Positions 3,901-57,950 of a stretch of DNA of 64,000 nt are shown piece by piece; position 1 is the stretch's first letter; each line of letters begins with the position of its first letter. This DNA comes from Sutcliffiella sp. FSL R7-0096 (lineage in GTDB: Bacteria > Bacillota > Bacilli > Bacillales > Bacillaceae_I): positions 538,001 through 602,000 of the forward strand of contig NZ_CP152003.1 in the NCBI RefSeq assembly GCF_038595065.1. Direction: 5' to 3'. Both the position numbers and the translations under genes were made by a program. The notes under the pieces were generated by a model. The model was not told where the DNA came from. It worked only from the letters and a program-made list of their open reading frames with translations, and searched no databases.

Positions 3901-4806
3901 CTAAAACTCCCTTACGTCCCCAAAATACTCCTCCAATGTGATCCCTTTCTCATAAATCTCCCCAGCGATCTCCACTCCAACATACCGGAAATGCCAAGGC
4001 TCAAATGCATACCCCGTGATAGTAGTCTTCCCTTTCGGATAGCGCAGAATAAAGCCATAATGATGGGCGTTCTCAGCAAGCCACTTGCCTTCTGCAGTAC
4101 CCTCAAACTTCTCCACAAGCTCAAGGCCCACGCTTTTAGCGGTGATGTCCATGGCAAGCCCCGTCTGGTGCTCGCTCGTTCCGGGCAGGGCCACATAAAG
4201 GACCGCCCGCTCATAGCCGAATGCGGCGACCTCATTCTTAAAAATAGCAGCTTGTGTTTCATAAGAACGGAAGCCGGAGCGTGCGTAAAGCTCAATGCCC
4301 TCCCCCTTGGCGACCTGGAACATGACCTCAAGCGACTCGGCGGCTTCGGCACGCAGCTTGGAACGGTCGCTGTTTTCATCCCCGAAGGAAAACGGCACAT
4401 TCGGCTTGATCAAGTCCCCAGGGCGGTACCCCTCCGGTAGCGACCAGAATTTATTGACCATGACATTCATCGCGCCAGGATTGGCAACGACAGGGATCGC
4501 TTCAGGCTCCGACGGGTCTTCTGCGTCAGCAGGATGGGAAGGATCCTCCTCGTTCACCGCCTCTTCAGGATCCTCCTCTGCGGAGGGTACCTCCTCAGCC
4601 CCGTCTTCCTCTTCTAGCGATTCTGCCCCTCCTTTTTCAAAAAAAACATCCCACGCCATATCATAATCCGTCATTTGTGGAACCGCCGTTTTAAAGGCAT
4701 GTGCAGTGCCAACCAACGCTTCCTTTTCCTCTCCTAAACTATCAAAACTTGTACAACCTGCCAAAAGGCTCAAGGTCACGCCACAAATAATTCCTTTTTT
4801 TATCAT
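3901..4806 (-). CDS. VanY-type D-Ala-D-Ala carboxypeptidase lipoprotein
   Basis: Predicted zinc peptidase of the VanY (M15B) family that trims the C-terminal D-Ala of peptidoglycan stem peptides outside the cell. Residues 1-18 form a lipoprotein signal with lipobox LLAG-Cys18. Residues 61-104 form a very acidic, proline-containing linker. The catalytic domain follows: SGFRSYE near 177-183, the zinc ligands His213 and Asp220 in SEHQTGLAMD, and Glu269 with His272 in EPWH. It is 301 aa, about family size plus the linker. It is transcribed on its own and divergently from nfeD-floT. A second, more VanY-like paralogue lies at 56.1 kb. The family is sure; activity on D-Ala-D-Ala rather than D-Ala-D-Lac is inference. 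Confidence 0.88.
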   Translation of the reverse strand: MIKKGIICGVTLSLLAGCTSFDSLGEEKEALVGTAHAFKTAVPQMTDYDMAWDVFFEKGGAESLEEEDGAEEVPSAEEDPEEAVNEEDPSHPADAEDPSEPEAIPVVANPGAMNVMVNKFWSLPEGYRPGDLIKPNVPFSFGDENSDRSKLRAEAAESLEVMFQVAKGEGIELYARSGFRSYETQAAIFKNEVAAFGYERAVLYVALPGTSEHQTGLAMDITAKSVGLELVEKFEGTAEGKWLAENAHHYGFILRYPKGKTTITGYAFEPWHFRYVGVEIAGEIYEKGITLEEYFGDVREF

Positions 4807-9010: not shown

Positions 9011-9040
9011 TAATTTTATTAAAAACAACACAAATGAAAC

Positions 9041-9192
9041 GCTTATCTAGAGCGGCTGAGGGACTGGCCCGTTGAAGCCCGGCAACCTGCGAACAGCAAG
9101 GTGCCAATTCCAGCAAAATGGATACCCATTTTGGAAGATAAGGTGCAGGATACATACAATGCGCCTTTCCATAATGGAAGAGGCGTTTTTTA
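9041..9192 (+). ncRNA. SAM-I riboswitch (S-box) with terminator
   Basis: The core contains the S-box landmarks: TTATC-AGAG, GAGGGACTGGCCC, GAAGCCCGGCAACC and AAGGTGCCAATTCC, ending with the closing GATAAG near 9143. A terminator follows at about 9161-9192 (CGCCTTTCCAT / ATGGAAGAGGCG then a T-run). SAM binding is expected to favour termination, so the downstream sulfate genes are read when SAM is low. The B. subtilis cysH operon has also been linked to an S-box leader. Confidence 0.96.
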
Positions 9193-18339: not shown

Positions 18340-18568
18340 TCAATATCAAACGTCGAAGAGGACCAGTAAAATGATTTCGTCTATCCAAGAGAGGGTGCCG
18401 AGTGGTGGGAGGCAGCCATAGATGACCATTTGAACCTGCCTCAGAGTTCTGCATCCGAAACGGTGCAGCGGTTCAAAACCGTTACCATGAAAGAGAGTGA
18501 AGCCTTGCTTTGAATAAGGGTGGTACCGCCGGAAATGGTCCCTTATTTATAGCGGGGCTTTTTTTATT
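18340..18568 (+). ncRNA. T-box leader, proline-type
   Basis: Stem I landmarks (GTCGAAGAGGACCAGTA and the AGAGAGGGTGCCGAG segment) and the T-box itself, AAGGGTGGTACCGCCGG at about 18516-18532, are clear. A competing terminator follows: AGCC at 18501 pairs with GGCT at 18556, AATAAGGG with CCCTTATT, then T7. A likely specifier is CCT (Pro) at 18435-18437, in TGAACCTG. This fits the proS gene downstream: uncharged tRNA-Pro should promote read-through. Confidence 0.93.
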
Positions 18569-53247: not shown

Positions 53248-53526
53248 TTTGGATACGTAGCTAGGCATTCAAAAAGAATGGTTTATTCTAGAGCGGCTGT
53301 TGCTTCCATTCCTCCTTCCATCGGTATCCTACCAAAAATAATGGGATTACCGGATATCAAGTGATGCATATAATGAGTTATGGATTAGAAGATCTGAAAG
53401 AATACCAAGAGATTGCATTGCCATATTCGGTGACTAAACTTTTGAAGGCAATTCGAAACTTTATAAATGTTAAACCGTAAAGTAACTAAGTAATGTCCAA
53501 TACCAATAAAATACAGGGGGTTTGTG

Positions 53527-53964
53527 ATGAGAAAATTTTTGAGGTATTTTTTCTGGACGGTGGTTATCGGGTTTATCATCTATGTTGGTTCAAGGTATGA
53601 GTTGCATCTAATCGAACAAGGTCAAATGAATTATAATTTTTGGCCTACGGTGATATTTGCAACAATATTCCCGGTCTTGATAGGGATACTCCTTCGCTTG
53701 CCAAGGTTAATAAAAGAGATAAAACAGGAAAAGGCATGGTCGGTGAATTGGATCAAGCTACTGGCGGTCGGACTCCCAATCTTTTACGTAGTTTTGGTTC
53801 CCTTACTTTCACTTACTAGCCTATTTAGGTACCTCCCATTTGCGATGGACATCATACATTTTGATCTTGCAACCTTAGCTGGGGTGATTTTTGGTTATGT
53901 GTTAATGGATAGTTTGAAGGAAGATGAGGAGAATGTAGACACTATCCAAATGGCGCGTATATAG
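53527..53964 (+). CDS. Predicted three-helix membrane protein
   Basis: A 145-aa protein with hydrophobic segments at about 5-20, 38-55 and 75-95, followed by a fourth region near 112-125, and an acidic C-terminus. AGGGGG at 53515-53520 favours the ATG at 53527 over GTG 53524. No family recognised. A terminator follows, so it is separate from the vanR-type gene downstream. Confidence 0.7.
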   Translation: MRKFLRYFFWTVVIGFIIYVGSRYELHLIEQGQMNYNFWPTVIFATIFPVLIGILLRLPRLIKEIKQEKAWSVNWIKLLAVGLPIFYVVLVPLLSLTSLFRYLPFAMDIIHFDLATLAGVIFGYVLMDSLKEDEENVDTIQMARI

Positions 53965-54017: not shown

Positions 54018-54072
54018 TTTAAGAAAAAGTTAAGTATTATCCCATGGTTTTTTAAAGGAATTTTATATAAAG
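54018..54072 (+). promoter_or_regulatory. Candidate VanR box and promoter of vanR-vanS
   Basis: TTTAAGAAAAA at 54018-54028, then GTTAAG and a TTTTTTAAA at about 54048, are repeated almost identically upstream of the vanY-type gene (56010). TATATA or TATAAA near 54064-54071 can serve as -10. The repeat of the whole layout in front of both genes suggests binding of the same response regulator. Confidence 0.6.
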
Positions 54073-54201
54073 TGGTAGATGAAAAGGTAATGCCGTTATA
54101 TCCATTTGGACAGAATATGTCCAAAGAGTAATCATTCGATTAGTTGCGACGAATTAATGCAAGCCTTTTGAGAATACGATTTTATATAGGAGTGGAAATA
54201 A

Positions 54202-54897
54202 TTGAAACGTTTATCCATTTTAATTGCTGATGATGATGCTGAAATTGCTGATCTGGTCGCTATCCATTTAGAAAAAGAAGGGTATCATGTTATAAAAGTT
54301 TCAGATGGGGAAGAGGCTGTTCTTGCAGTTGAAACTCAATCGGTTGATTTGATGATTTTAGATATCATGATGCCAAAAATGGATGGTTATGAAGTAACCC
54401 GAAGCATTCGCGAAAAGCATAATTTGCCGATCATCTTTTTAAGTGCCAAGACATCGGATTTCGATAAGGTACAGGGACTAGTCATTGGAGCGGATGATTA
54501 TATGACGAAGCCATTCACACCAATAGAATTGGTTGCCCGTGTAAATGCTCAACTCAGACGTTTTATGAAGCTTAATCAGCCGAAAATAGATAATAAAAGC
54601 TCCTTGGAATATAGAGGGTTAGTGATAACTCCTGATCAGCGCACAGTAACCCTTTATGGTGAGAGCATACAGCTTAGGCCGAAAGAGTTTGACATTTTGT
54701 ATTTACTTGCGTGTAATCCAAAGAAGGTTTATAGTGTGGAAAATATATTCCAGCAGGTTTGGGGTGAAGCATATTTTGAAAGTGGGAATACCGTTATGGT
54801 TCACATACGTACACTTAGGAAAAAGCTTGAAGAAGATAAGCGGAAAGAAAAATGGATTAAGACAGTATGGGGAGTAGGGTATACATTTAATGGGTAA
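54202..54897 (+). CDS. VanR-like response regulator (OmpR family)
   Basis: A 231-aa response regulator: receiver domain with the acidic pair in LIADDDAEIADL, phospho-acceptor Asp54 and Lys103 in DDYMTKPF, then an OmpR-type winged helix (YSVENIFQQVWGEAYFE ... VMVHIRTLRKKLEED). The wording of many blocks (IGADDYMTKPF, ELVARVNAQLRR, KTVWGVGY) is very near that of VanR from vancomycin-resistance clusters. It starts with TTG behind AGGAGTGG. It overlaps the kinase gene by 8 bp. Confidence 0.88.
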   Translation: MKRLSILIADDDAEIADLVAIHLEKEGYHVIKVSDGEEAVLAVETQSVDLMILDIMMPKMDGYEVTRSIREKHNLPIIFLSAKTSDFDKVQGLVIGADDYMTKPFTPIELVARVNAQLRRFMKLNQPKIDNKSSLEYRGLVITPDQRTVTLYGESIQLRPKEFDILYLLACNPKKVYSVENIFQQVWGEAYFESGNTVMVHIRTLRKKLEEDKRKEKWIKTVWGVGYTFNG

Positions 54898-56005
54898 AAT
54901 GATGCACAGCTTTAGGTCAAAAATGGTACTATTATTTGGTTTAAGTATGATTTTTTCTGGAATTATAACATTTATAGTCTTTAAATCACTCCAACTGTAT
55001 TATTATACCAATGTCGAGTATGGTGACCAACTAGAATATTATCGGAAGGTTATGAATCAAATTGGCGACATTAATGTATTTTTACTACTTTTTATCCCTC
55101 TTTCGTTCATGTTCTTTTACATACTTACGAAGCGATATTCTATCTATTTTTACAAGATTTTAATCGGAATCAACCAACTATCTCGGGGAGACTTTACCCA
55201 TCAAATTCAAATAAAATCAAATGATGAATTTCAGCAAATAGCCCATGATATCAATTTGGCAAGTGAAAAATTGAAACAAGCTGTAGAAAGAGGCGATTTT
55301 TCGGAAAGCAGTAAGGATCAATTGGTTGTAAATTTAGCTCATGATTTGCGGACGCCGCTTACCTCTGTACTGGGATATTTAGATTTAATCCTAAAGGATG
55401 AAAACTTGACAAAAGAACAAGCAAGACATTTTTTAACCATTGCTTTCACTAAGTCTCAACGTTTAGAAAGGCTGATTGATGAATTATTTGAAATAACTAG
55501 AATGAACTATGGAATGCTTCCGGTTGAAAAAAATAGATTGAACTTAACGGACCTCCTTAATCAATTAAAGGAAGAATTGTATCCAGTCCTCAAAAAGAAT
55601 CATTTGGTTGCCCGCCTGGAATGTACCTCTCACTTACCAATTTTAGGTGATGGAGAATTGATAGCCCGTGTGTTTGAAAATCTTCTGACCAATGCCATTC
55701 GTTATGGATATGAAGGTCAGTATGTCGATATCTACGGCACTATTGAACTAGATGAAGTAGTCGTTCAAGTTGTGAATTATGGAGATAGTATTCCTCCTGA
55801 TGAACTCCCGCAAATCTTTGAGATGTTCTATACTGGTGACAAGGCAAGAACGAATCAAGAAGACAGCACTGGTCTTGGCTTGTTCATTGCGAGGAATATT
55901 TTAGAGCAGCACAATGGTACCATCACTGTCGAAAGTAATGTCATCAAAACAGTCTTTGAAGTTCGCTTACCAAAGGATAATGAACAAATTAATCTAGATA
56001 AATAA
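54890..56005 (+). CDS. VanS-like sensor histidine kinase
   Basis: A 371-aa membrane kinase: two transmembrane helices (about 12-32 and 62-80) with a short extracellular loop of about 30 residues, a HAMP-like linker, the H-box NLAHDLRTPLTSV with His151, then N (FENLLTNAIRYG), G1 and G2 (STGLGLFIARNIL) boxes. VanS proteins have this compact layout. The small loop leaves little room for ligand binding, so sensing may be within or near the membrane. ATG 54890 or ATG 54899 are both possible starts. Confidence 0.87.
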   Translation: MGKMMHSFRSKMVLLFGLSMIFSGIITFIVFKSLQLYYYTNVEYGDQLEYYRKVMNQIGDINVFLLLFIPLSFMFFYILTKRYSIYFYKILIGINQLSRGDFTHQIQIKSNDEFQQIAHDINLASEKLKQAVERGDFSESSKDQLVVNLAHDLRTPLTSVLGYLDLILKDENLTKEQARHFLTIAFTKSQRLERLIDELFEITRMNYGMLPVEKNRLNLTDLLNQLKEELYPVLKKNHLVARLECTSHLPILGDGELIARVFENLLTNAIRYGYEGQYVDIYGTIELDEVVVQVVNYGDSIPPDELPQIFEMFYTGDKARTNQEDSTGLGLFIARNILEQHNGTITVESNVIKTVFEVRLPKDNEQINLDK

Positions 56006-56009
56006 AGGA

Positions 56010-56065
56010 TTTAAGAAAAATTTAAAAATTACCCTACTCTTTTTTTAAATAATTTCCCCTATTCT
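56010..56065 (+). promoter_or_regulatory. Candidate VanR box and promoter of the vanY-type gene
   Basis: TTTAAGAAAAA at 56010-56020 is followed 19 bp later by TTTTTTTAAA, the same order and distance as upstream of the vanR-type gene. TATTCT at 56060-56065 is a possible -10. Confidence 0.6.
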
Positions 56066-56098
56066 TTAAGAAAGAAAGAACAAGGAGGAAACTAGATA

Positions 56099-56965
56099 AT
56101 GAAAAAGTGGGGCTTGGCATTAATAATATGTTTGGGGTTAACTTTTGTTTATATGAAACCTTTTGCTGAACCAAAAGTAGAAATACAATATGATGATTAT
56201 AAAAATGATAAAGAGGATAGTTGGACTACAGAAGAAATTCAAAAAGAGATTAATGTGGAACAAATTTATCAAGGCAATCTGCTTTTGGTCAATAGTGAAC
56301 ATCCGGTTTACCAAGAGAGTATTAAATCGGATATAGTAAATTTATCAGCCAACAATGATTTAACACAAGGTTACGTATTGTTAGGCACTGACATATATTT
56401 ATCAGAGGAGATTGCGCATAAATTCCAAGAGATGATTGCAGCTGCAGGAAAAGAGGGCCTTCAATACTTCGCCATTACAAGCGGATTTCGAGACTTCAAT
56501 GAGCAAAGTATACTTTTTCAAAACATGGGTTCTGACTATGCTTTGCCACCTGGATATAGCGAACATAACCTGGGCTTATCGCTTGATGTAGGATCTACTC
56601 AGATGAGGATGACTGATGCACCAGAAGGAAAGTGGATAGAAGAAAACGCTTGGAAATACGGGTTCATTTTACGCTATCCAAAGGATAAGGTAGGAATTAC
56701 GGGCATTCAATATGAACCGTGGCACATCCGCTATGTTGGTTTCCCACACAGTGCAATTATGAAGGAAAAGAATTTAGTTCTAGAAGAATATATGGAATAT
56801 CTAAAAAAAGAAGAAACCATATCTGCTAATGTAAACGGGGAGAGGTATGAGATTTCTTATTACCCTGTTACGGAGAATACGTCGATTCCTGTGCCTGCCG
56901 ATCATTATTATGAGATTTCAGGTAACAATGTCGATGGTGTGATTGTAACAGTGTTTTCCTCATAG
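56099..56965 (+). CDS. vanY: VanY D,D-carboxypeptidase, close to VanY of vancomycin-resistance clusters
   Basis: A 288-aa membrane-anchored zinc peptidase. One N-terminal helix (about 4-18) anchors it; the catalytic domain contains TSGFRDFNEQSILFQNMG, SEHNLGLSLD with His156 and Asp163, and EPWH with Glu206 and His209. Long stretches (the IVNLS block, APEGKWIEENAWKYGFILRYP, PHSAIMKEKN, and the C-terminal SGNN-DGVIVTVF) agree closely with the enterococcal VanY as I remember it. GGAGGAAAC precedes the ATG. It removes the last D-Ala from pentapeptides. No vanH, vanA or vanX lies next to it. Confidence 0.9.
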   Translation: MKKWGLALIICLGLTFVYMKPFAEPKVEIQYDDYKNDKEDSWTTEEIQKEINVEQIYQGNLLLVNSEHPVYQESIKSDIVNLSANNDLTQGYVLLGTDIYLSEEIAHKFQEMIAAAGKEGLQYFAITSGFRDFNEQSILFQNMGSDYALPPGYSEHNLGLSLDVGSTQMRMTDAPEGKWIEENAWKYGFILRYPKDKVGITGIQYEPWHIRYVGFPHSAIMKEKNLVLEEYMEYLKKEETISANVNGERYEISYYPVTENTSIPVPADHYYEISGNNVDGVIVTVFSS

Positions 56966-57059
56966 GCATGCTGTCTACTCAGGATGAGGAATAAACAGAA
57001 CATAAGGTATCATAATACCCTACTTTCACTTAATATAAATATATTAAGGAGTGATATGA

Positions 57060-57224
57060 ATGAGTGGTAAAGTAAGTTGGTTTATACTTTCTTTTTTTGT
57101 AGTCATGATGACAGTCGTGGGTTTAATTGCATTTGATAATATAGCTTCATCGCTAATTTTTGGGCTAGGTGTCGGTGGGATATTTGGTTGGATATTTTCC
57201 AAAAAATCTAAAGTGAAAGAATAG
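57060..57224 (+). CDS. Small membrane protein downstream of vanY
   Basis: A 54-aa protein of almost entirely hydrophobic sequence: one helix at about 7-24 (WFILSFFVVMMTVVGLIAF), a short turn, and a second at 30-46 (SSLIFGLGVGGIFGWIF), ending in KKSKVKE. AAGGAGTG at 57046-57053 supports the ATG at 57060. The ATG at 57056 leads at once to a stop. It is closed by a terminator, which may also close the vanY transcript. Confidence 0.65.
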   Translation: MSGKVSWFILSFFVVMMTVVGLIAFDNIASSLIFGLGVGGIFGWIFSKKSKVKE

Positions 57225-57539: not shown

Positions 57540-57950
57540 ATGGAAATTAAGTTCAGTAGGGATAAAGACATCAAGCTAGAACAACTAGAGAAATTATACA
57601 ACGATTTAGAATGGTATGCTTACACTAAGGATTTACATGTCCTTCATCAAGCGATCTATCAGTCTTTAGATGTTATTTCTGCGTGGAATGACGACGAATT
57701 GGTAGGGTTGATTCGTATAGTTGGTGATGGATTGACCATTATCTATATCCAAGATATTTTAGTGTTGAATGCTTATCAAAATCAAGGAATTGCTACTCAA
57801 CTGATACAACAGATTCTAGAGAAATATGTACATGTTCGTCAAACAGTTTTACTAACGGAGGAAGCTCCTGATGTAAGGCATTTTTATGAAAAAAATGGCT
57901 TTGAATCTTGTGATAAGGGATTGTTAGTTGCCTTTGCAAAGTTTAATTAA
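57540..57950 (+). CDS. Short GNAT acetyltransferase
   Basis: A 136-aa N-acetyltransferase with the compact form: LEKLYNDLEWYAYTKD near the start, IYIQDILVLNAYQNQGIATQLIQQIL (motif A, around residue 75) and APDVRHFYEKNGFES near the end. Similar to Bacillus YhbS/YwnH-sized proteins. GAGGAGGAAAAAG lies before the ATG. The substrate is unknown. Confidence 0.87.
   Translation: MEIKFSRDKDIKLEQLEKLYNDLEWYAYTKDLHVLHQAIYQSLDVISAWNDDELVGLIRIVGDGLTIIYIQDILVLNAYQNQGIATQLIQQILEKYVHVRQTVLLTEEAPDVRHFYEKNGFESCDKGLLVAFAKFN

What the first reader, a model, noticed from the sequence alone, without database searches (positions are those of the whole stretch)
54018..57224. Orphan vanR-vanS-vanY unit with shared regulatory sequence
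A VanR-like regulator, VanS-like kinase and a VanY that agrees with the enterococcal enzyme over long blocks stand together without vanH, vanA or vanX. Upstream of both vanR and vanY the same arrangement occurs: TTTAAGAAAAA, a 19-bp gap and a TTTTTTAAA block (54018 and 56010), as expected for one regulator driving both. A small membrane protein follows. It may be a self-contained wall-sensing system in a soil bacterium and a possible source of the vanY of resistance clusters. A second VanY-family gene at 3901 shares only the fold.
Basis: partly seen in the sequence, partly recalled or inferred. Interest (0 to 1): 0.72.

Follow-up and report, generated by a model that had tools for sequence, protein, structure and literature searches.

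The report
Ligase-free vanRSY unit with shared operator
A Bacillus-type bacterium carries a sensor, a regulator and a wall-trimming enzyme that closely match parts of hospital vancomycin-resistance clusters but without the resistance genes proper, and a long, well-kept control sequence in front of the enzyme gene is the same one found in the enterococcal vanM cluster.

Summary
VanR (54202-54897), VanS (54890-56005) and VanY (56099-56965) stand together. The genome's only VanA-ligase match is 34% alike (Ddl-like), and a VanX search was empty. VanR and VanY pass the NCBIfam cut-offs for VanR-F/M and VanY-A/F/M; VanS falls just below its own. The repeated element is part of a 57-nt block before vanY. 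The block recurs before vanY in all 22 close named loci fetched (Bacillaceae-type) and in the enterococcal vanM cluster, not in the vanA cluster. An exact core pattern had 10 matches in 398 Bacilli genomes, all 85-210 nt upstream of a VanY-family match; the reversed pattern had none. The copy before vanR is restricted to 6 of 32 units.

Ligase-free vanRSY units and a Bacillaceae origin of vanM/vanA accessory genes are already published (PMC11273654). What I did not find in print is the operator, its presence in vanM, and a secreted PepSY-like protein under the same operator in some relatives. Trees put VanR-M, VanS-M and VanY-M beside Robertmurraya/Rossellomorea units, so this copy is a cousin, not the source. 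The 54-aa protein is local, not core. Most likely VanR drives VanY, which removes terminal D-Ala from wall precursors under wall stress; signal and phenotype are inferred.

The parts
54018..54074 (+). Copy of the operator block upstream of vanR (57 nt, diverged form)
54202..54897 (+). vanR, OmpR-type response regulator, VanR-F/M family, 231 aa, TTG start
   Evidence: the start is aligned with ATG/GTG starts of relatives
54890..56005 (+). vanS, membrane sensor histidine kinase, VanS-like, 371 aa, overlaps vanR
   Evidence: (below the curated cut-off)
56010..56066 (+). Operator block upstream of vanY (57 nt): two TTTAA(G)-type repeats 11 nt apart, a third about 34 nt from the first; putative -10 TATTCT at 56060-56065 (inferred)
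   Evidence: 75.9-76.0 bits; 35 of 57 columns invariant over 22 units
56099..56965 (+). vanY, membrane-anchored D,D-carboxypeptidase of the VanY-A/F/M family, 288 aa; SEHNLGLSLDV and EPWH motifs intact
   Evidence: the role of the motifs is recalled
57060..57224 (+). 54-aa small hydrophobic protein; same-genus neighbour, not a conserved part of the unit
   Evidence: no family; found in G006 and G005 only
53524..53964 (+). Left flank gene (146 aa, no family), kept in same-genus genomes without the unit
57540..57950 (+). Right flank gene (GNAT acetyltransferase); follows the left flank gene directly in same-genus genomes without the unit

Best explanation
This is a ligase-free VanR-VanS-VanY response unit of the VanF/VanM type. 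Shown by sequence: the three genes, the 57-nt block before vanY, its near-exclusive place before VanY genes, and its presence in the vanM cluster. Inferred: phosphorylated VanR binds the TTTAAG-type repeats just upstream of a weak promoter and switches on vanY, and in this lineage also vanRS, which gives positive feedback. VanS is driven by a glycopeptide or by the wall-precursor state that wall-active drugs cause. VanY, held outside the membrane, clips the last D-Ala from pentapeptides and so lowers the number of D-Ala-D-Ala targets and of cross-links. Without VanH, ligase and VanX the effect would be tolerance or wall remodelling, not high-level resistance. The vanM operon looks like such a unit with vanH, vanM and vanX placed behind vanY under the same block.
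For: NCBIfam matches. R, S and Y adjacent in 21 of 22 close named loci, no VanH, ligase or VanX match over 60 bits in them. Block before vanY in 22 of 26 further stretches scanned, the 4 others being vanA-type or distant, and 35 of 57 columns invariant in 22 units. Exact core pattern: 10 of 10 matches in 398 genomes lie before VanY-family matches, reversed control 0; in 12 carriers 9 of 11 matches are before vanY and 2 before PepSY-like genes, control 0. VanR recognition region more conserved (0.93) than the receiver domain (0.87), in 39 rows. vanM: block 78.5 bits before vanY, none before vanH. A comparable circuit, dacJRS, was shown elsewhere to control both its promoters and to remove vancomycin-binding sites (PMC11326576, passages).
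Against: No binding, expression or phenotype data. VanS is below its NCBIfam cut-off and its outer loop is its least conserved part (0.64), so no fixed ligand is indicated. The vanR-side copy is in only 6 of 32 units and survives in G005, which has no VanY over the cut-off; whether G005 has this VanR was not tested. dacJRS was not induced by vancomycin in the strain studied. The exact pattern finds only 10 of the 62 genomes with a strong VanY match and misses the window itself, so it is specific but not sensitive.
Confidence: 0.6

Rival explanations
1. The same regulator-operator-VanY circuit, but its native job is wall housekeeping or defence against other envelope stresses (antimicrobial peptides, lantibiotics, lytic enzymes); glycopeptides are not the natural signal.
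For: No resistance ligase; variable VanS outer loop; a PepSY-like secreted protein shares the operator in some relatives; cwaRS-ldcA of Lactobacillus paracasei, a two-component system with a carboxypeptidase, matters for antimicrobial-peptide tolerance (PMC7062640, abstract); dacJRS did not answer vancomycin in the strain studied.
Against: The same R-S-Y proteins and operator work inside the vanM glycopeptide-resistance cluster, which fits an input related to glycopeptide action.
Confidence: 0.32
2. A decayed resistance cluster that lost vanH, ligase and vanX.
For: Broken clusters exist: L112 keeps intact vanA-type R and S and a VanY around fragments of vanH and a ligase. Gene loss at this site did happen in G005.
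Against: No fragment of vanH, ligase or vanX in any of the 22 close named loci; ligase-free units are the rule, and the vanM proteins are nested among them.
Confidence: 0.05
3. The block is the site of another, general regulator or an AT-rich promoter shared by chance, not of this VanR.
For: It is AT-rich, and TTTAAG-like repeats are usual for OmpR-family sites (recalled). G005 keeps the vanR-side copy without vanRSY. L022 and L124 have the block without an F/M-type VanR beside it.
Against: In carriers all 11 pattern matches lie before vanY (9) or PepSY-like genes (2), reversed control 0; in 398 genomes 10 of 10 exact matches lie before VanY-family matches.
Confidence: 0.06

Closest known systems
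Ligase-free vanRSY units of Bacillaceae (Kardos et al. 2024, PMC11273654)
   Same: VanR-M/F-type regulator, VanS and VanY together without a resistance ligase, in spore-forming bacilli; proposed there as the origin of vanRS and vanY of resistance operons
   Different: In the parts read (four of six) no operator, regulon or PepSY partner is described; the window is one more member, with an extra operator copy before vanR
Enterococcal vanM cluster (L106, L029)
   Same: Same gene order R-S-Y, 61% (VanY) to 78% (VanR) identity, same 57-nt block before vanY
   Different: vanH, vanM and vanX follow vanY; plasmid with IS1216; no block before vanR
Enterococcal vanA cluster (L030, pIP816)
   Same: VanY 66% identical
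   Different: VanR 47% identical and on a separate branch; VanY lies behind vanHAX; no block
dacJRS of Clostridioides difficile (PMC11326576, passages)
   Same: Dedicated two-component system controlling a D,D-carboxypeptidase and its own promoter; works alike in outline
   Different: Other organism and gene order; kinase mutations were needed; not induced by vancomycin in that strain; kinship of DacJ to VanY not tested here
VanYn of Nonomuraea (PMC3610138, start of abstract in a listing only)
   Same: A D,D-carboxypeptidase used for glycopeptide self-resistance
   Different: Actinomycete antibiotic producer; sequence kinship not tested here

Membership tests
VanR-F/VanR-M (NF033120) | Score over the curated cut-off (460) | tested here: met
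   474 bits
VanY-A/F/M (NF000472) | Score over the curated cut-off (425) | tested here: met
   457.1 bits
VanS (NF033091) | Score over the curated cut-off (400) | tested here: not met
   369.8 bits; VanS-M of vanM itself scores 405.8; the window VanS lies in the F/M-type branch of the VanS tree
Ligase-free vanRSY unit | Adjacent F/M-type vanR, vanS, vanY without vanH, ligase, vanX | tested here: met
   (VanH tested only in the stretch)
Ligase-free vanRSY unit | 57-nt block before vanY (feature found here) | tested here: met
   75.9 bits; shuffle maximum of 78 is -11.7
Glycopeptide-resistance cluster (vanA/vanM type) | D-Ala-D-Lac ligase with VanH and VanX | tested here: not met
   one VanA match, 34%, Ddl-like; VanX none (no positive control)
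D,D-carboxypeptidase | Enzyme activity on D-Ala-D-Ala | not testable with these tools
   only motifs and kinship
VanRS system | Induction by glycopeptide or wall stress | not testable with these tools
   none

The most novel reading that the evidence does not exclude
A single VanR operator defines an old, ligase-independent wall-stress regulon of spore-forming bacilli (VanY throughout, a secreted PepSY-like protein in some), and this operator-vanY platform was the socket into which resistance genes were plugged more than once: vanH-vanM-vanX in the enterococcal vanM cluster, and a VanG-type ligase with VanXY and VanT in genome G355, each placed behind vanY under the same block.
Probability: 0.5. 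Interest if true: 0.68.

Novelty: new member of a known kind. Interest (0 to 1): 0.48.

Why it matters
It turns the published protein-tree argument for a bacillar origin of vanRS and vanY into a DNA-level one: the control sequence travelled with the genes into vanM. It gives a concrete, testable operator for the VanR-F/M group, predicts that vanHMX in vanM is read from the vanY promoter, and names a second candidate target (a PepSY-like protein). The natural signal of such units would bear on what VanS of resistance clusters senses, which a review calls unsettled (PMC8541618, passages).

Tried and rejected
General PhoP/WalR identity: rejected by NCBIfam and the VanR tree. Small membrane protein as a conserved partner: rejected for the core unit. 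Structured RNA leader before vanR: no Rfam match at gathering score in eight loci nor at this place in the window; folds of four relatives gave z-scores of -0.8 to -2.4, the window's own leader -4.4; not pursued. A relic of the block in vanA: the best place in L030 lies between vanS and vanH but scores -21.2, not significant. Structure prediction and fold search were not used.

Left open: vanF of Paenibacillus popilliae was not obtained. VanH was not searched in the whole genome. Of the 25 loci, L026-L028 (30-34% identity) were left out of the unit counts; L026 served as a negative and its VanR entered the VanR tree. From the trees were left out L029 (vanR broken), L113 and L125 (duplicates of L018 and L022), L027 and L028; one own-genome regulator (L063) was dropped because its alignment ran over a stop.
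Full report
Observation. The window is positions 538001-602000 of a one-contig 4.9-Mb genome. It lies in the same order as Peribacillus, inferred because genome G070 ('same order') gave a stretch on a contig of the same length as the Peribacillus record L018. vanR (54202-54897, TTG start), vanS (54890-56005) and vanY (56099-56965) are intact and on one strand. NCBIfam puts VanR in VanR-F/M (474 bits, cut-off 460) and VanY in VanY-A/F/M (457.1, cut-off 425); VanS is VanS-like but below its cut-off (369.8 against 400). VanY is 66.4% identical to VanY-A and 60.7% to VanY-M. The genome has one match to the VanA ligase, 34% identical and Ddl-like, and no VanX match (no positive control in that call). 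Two other VanY-family genes exist in the genome, each 44% identical over the catalytic part; the one at 3901 served as outgroup of the VanY tree, on a very long branch.

The repeated element. In the whole genome YTTAAGAAAAANTTAANNNTT with up to one mismatch occurs twice, both perfect and both in this unit; the reversed-pattern control also had two matches, so the number alone is not remarkable, the places are. By eye the block has TTTAAG, TTTAA 11 nt on, and TTTAAA about 34 nt from the first, with TATTCT at a fitting place for a -10; the first two repeats would lie just upstream of the -35 region, as usual for OmpR-family activators (recalled).

Conservation. A scan of genome contigs fetched 25 loci; 22 (L004-L025) match VanY at 54-75%, and L026-L028 (30-34%) are left out here. 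The record titles name 12 genera of Bacillus relatives, plus one record titled Pseudomonas sp. VanR and VanS precede VanY in 21 of 22; L022 has VanY only, and L021 has an extra gene between S and Y. None of the 22 shows a VanH, ligase or VanX match over 60 bits in the stretch held, about 7 kb on each side (less in L013). L015 and L017 have a VanZ 73-74% identical to VanZ-A after vanY (Pfam for L015). The vanS-vanY gap holds a 57-nt block far better kept than its surroundings: over 22 units (window, 20 named loci without L021 and L022, and vanM L106) 35 of 57 columns are invariant, mean majority share 0.92 against 0.55 in the preceding 30 nt, and the distance to vanY is 25-33 nt. A weight matrix from 21 loci, scanned over 26 stretches, scored above 0 upstream of vanY in 22 (L113 and L125 duplicate L018 and L022, and L018 was in the training set); 78 shuffled stretches reached at most -11.7. 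The lowest of the 22 is L118 with 0.3. The four without it are the vanA-type L030, L112 and L115, and the distant L026. The vanM cluster scores 78.5 and the window 75.9.

Specificity. The exact pattern TTAAGAAAAAYTTWANNNTTNNCCC had 10 matches in 10 of 398 Bacilli genomes; all 10 lie 85-210 nt upstream of the aligned start of a VanY-family match found independently (distances); the reversed pattern had no match. The pattern is not sensitive: 62 of 398 genomes had a VanY-family match at E <= 1e-80 (9 over the cut-off), and the window's own block has one mismatch to it. In 12 genomes known to carry the unit, a version with one mismatch allowed had 11 matches in 9 genomes: 9 before vanY, 2 before other genes, control 0. 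The two others, both in G408, precede secreted-looking proteins of 209 and 134 aa with weak PepSY similarity (below the Pfam cut-off). The gene between vanS and vanY in Salibacterium (L021), with its own block (49.9 bits), encodes a 210-aa protein 60% identical to the 209-aa one and above the PepSY cut-off. This protein was found at 8 places in 6 of 398 genomes at E <= 1e-15; all 6 genomes also have a VanY-family match, and the block precedes 7 of the 8 places, the eighth lying beside masked sequence. The six genomes belong to one family, so the co-occurrence is not independent evidence. The window genome has no match to this protein.

The copy before vanR. It is present in the window, L004, L005, L008, L025 and G006, found with the vanY-trained matrix. 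A second matrix made from these six found it in none of the other 26 units with vanR that were scanned. All six lie in one VanY clade of seven rows (support 85/77); the seventh, L009, lacks it. In the VanR and VanS trees the six do not form one group. So autoregulation through this block, if real, is a lineage trait. Of the 21 named loci with vanR, 16 have an element like GRAAATAATAGAAAAT (up to 3 mismatches) 46-182 nt before vanR; 85 of 2500 shuffles did as well.

Trees. VanY-M, VanR-M and VanS-M each group with the units of Robertmurraya (L011) and two Rossellomorea (L015, L017): supports 97/91, 93/89 and 99/96. The window's proteins pair with G006 (100/100, 100/99, 100/100). Many inner branches of the VanR tree are open and its bootstrap had not settled. 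In vanM vanH begins 125-137 nt behind vanY, depending on the start chosen, and no block lies before it, which suggests that vanHMX is read from the vanY promoter. G355 holds both a ligase-free unit (L114) and a cluster VanY-ligase-VanXY-VanT-VanR-VanS (L123). Its ligase passes the VanG cut-off (548.4 against 495); its VanY (403.3 against 425), VanXY and VanR (424.6 against 460) are below theirs; the block precedes its VanY with 55.0 bits.

Site and spread. Of 16 same-genus genomes (window included) 4 have a VanY over the cut-off. G006 has the unit at the same site; those of G004 and G012 share none of the nine flank proteins tested and lie elsewhere in the VanY tree. Of eight same-genus genomes without such a VanY whose site was fetched, five have the left flank gene, the GNAT and the DUF4269 gene in line; one (L176) has only a 20-residue GNAT match, one (L180) no GNAT match, and G005 (L174) has the left flank gene, the vanR-side block and the 54-aa gene but no vanRSY. 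In G005 the stretch after the left flank gene is 91.5% identical to the window, against 79.4% for that gene itself. A lost unit whose promoter now serves the 54-aa gene would fit; a site for another regulator is not excluded.

Mechanism. Shown: gene content, block, location, conservation. Inferred: VanR binding and activation, VanS signal, VanY acting on wall precursors. The VanR recognition region is highly conserved (mean majority share 0.93 over 39 rows, against 0.87 for the receiver domain), which fits a conserved operator; the VanS outer loop is the least conserved part (0.64 over 37 rows; segment borders set by eye), so a fixed ligand is not indicated. C. difficile dacJRS shows that such a circuit can control both promoters and remove vancomycin-binding sites, with a modest effect alone and without vancomycin induction in that strain (PMC11326576, passages). 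A review describes VanS-A as answering many wall-active agents (PMC8541618, passages).

Known and new. Ligase-free vanRSY in bacilli, and the origin of the vanM and vanA accessory and regulatory genes from Bacillaceae, are in print (PMC11273654: parts 1-4 of 6 read; passages). van clusters in Bacilli are surveyed in PMC9689679 (passages). In the listings I saw no paper about this operator or a PepSY partner. One search listed two papers with both PepSY and vanY; in the one that concerns proteins (PMC12419801, passages) the two words stand in unrelated places, and the other, on depression, was not opened. The library lacks most subscription journals, and the vanM description (PMC2976141) is not held.

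Noticed in passing
L133:1606-2235 (+), L137:1017-1421 (-), L021:6164-6796 (+), L151-L156, L158: Secreted PepSY-like proteins, in some relatives, each behind its own copy of the vanY operator block (34-60 bits); a likely second target of this VanR.
   Followed up: partly
L174:5160-5522: Same-genus genome G005 has no vanRSY at this site but keeps the vanR-side block (62.9 bits) directly before the 54-aa gene.
   Followed up: partly
L123: A VanG-type cluster (VanY-ligase-VanXY-VanT-VanR-VanS) with F/M-like VanR and the vanY block, in a genome that also has a ligase-free unit (L114).
   Followed up: partly
L015:7902-8381, L017:7902-8381: VanZ 73-74% identical to VanZ-A directly behind vanY in two ligase-free Rossellomorea units, the lineage nearest to vanM.
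   Followed up: no
46-182 nt upstream of vanR in 16 of 21 named loci (not in the window): A second conserved element, GRAAATAATAGAAAAT, perhaps the usual vanR promoter or another control site.
   Followed up: partly
window 54060-54197: The vanR leader folds better than 200 of 200 shuffles (z -4.4); no Rfam family there.
   Followed up: no
L112: vanA-type cluster in an unnamed Bacilli genome with intact vanR, vanS and vanY around fragments of vanH and a ligase.
   Followed up: no
L031, L006: Records titled Pseudomonas (a P. fluorescens plasmid, Pseudomonas sp. ISL-84) carry Bacillus-type vanRSY; probably mislabelled or mixed sequence.
   Followed up: no
window 18344-18546 and 9040-9144: A T-box leader and a SAM riboswitch by Rfam.
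   Followed up: no
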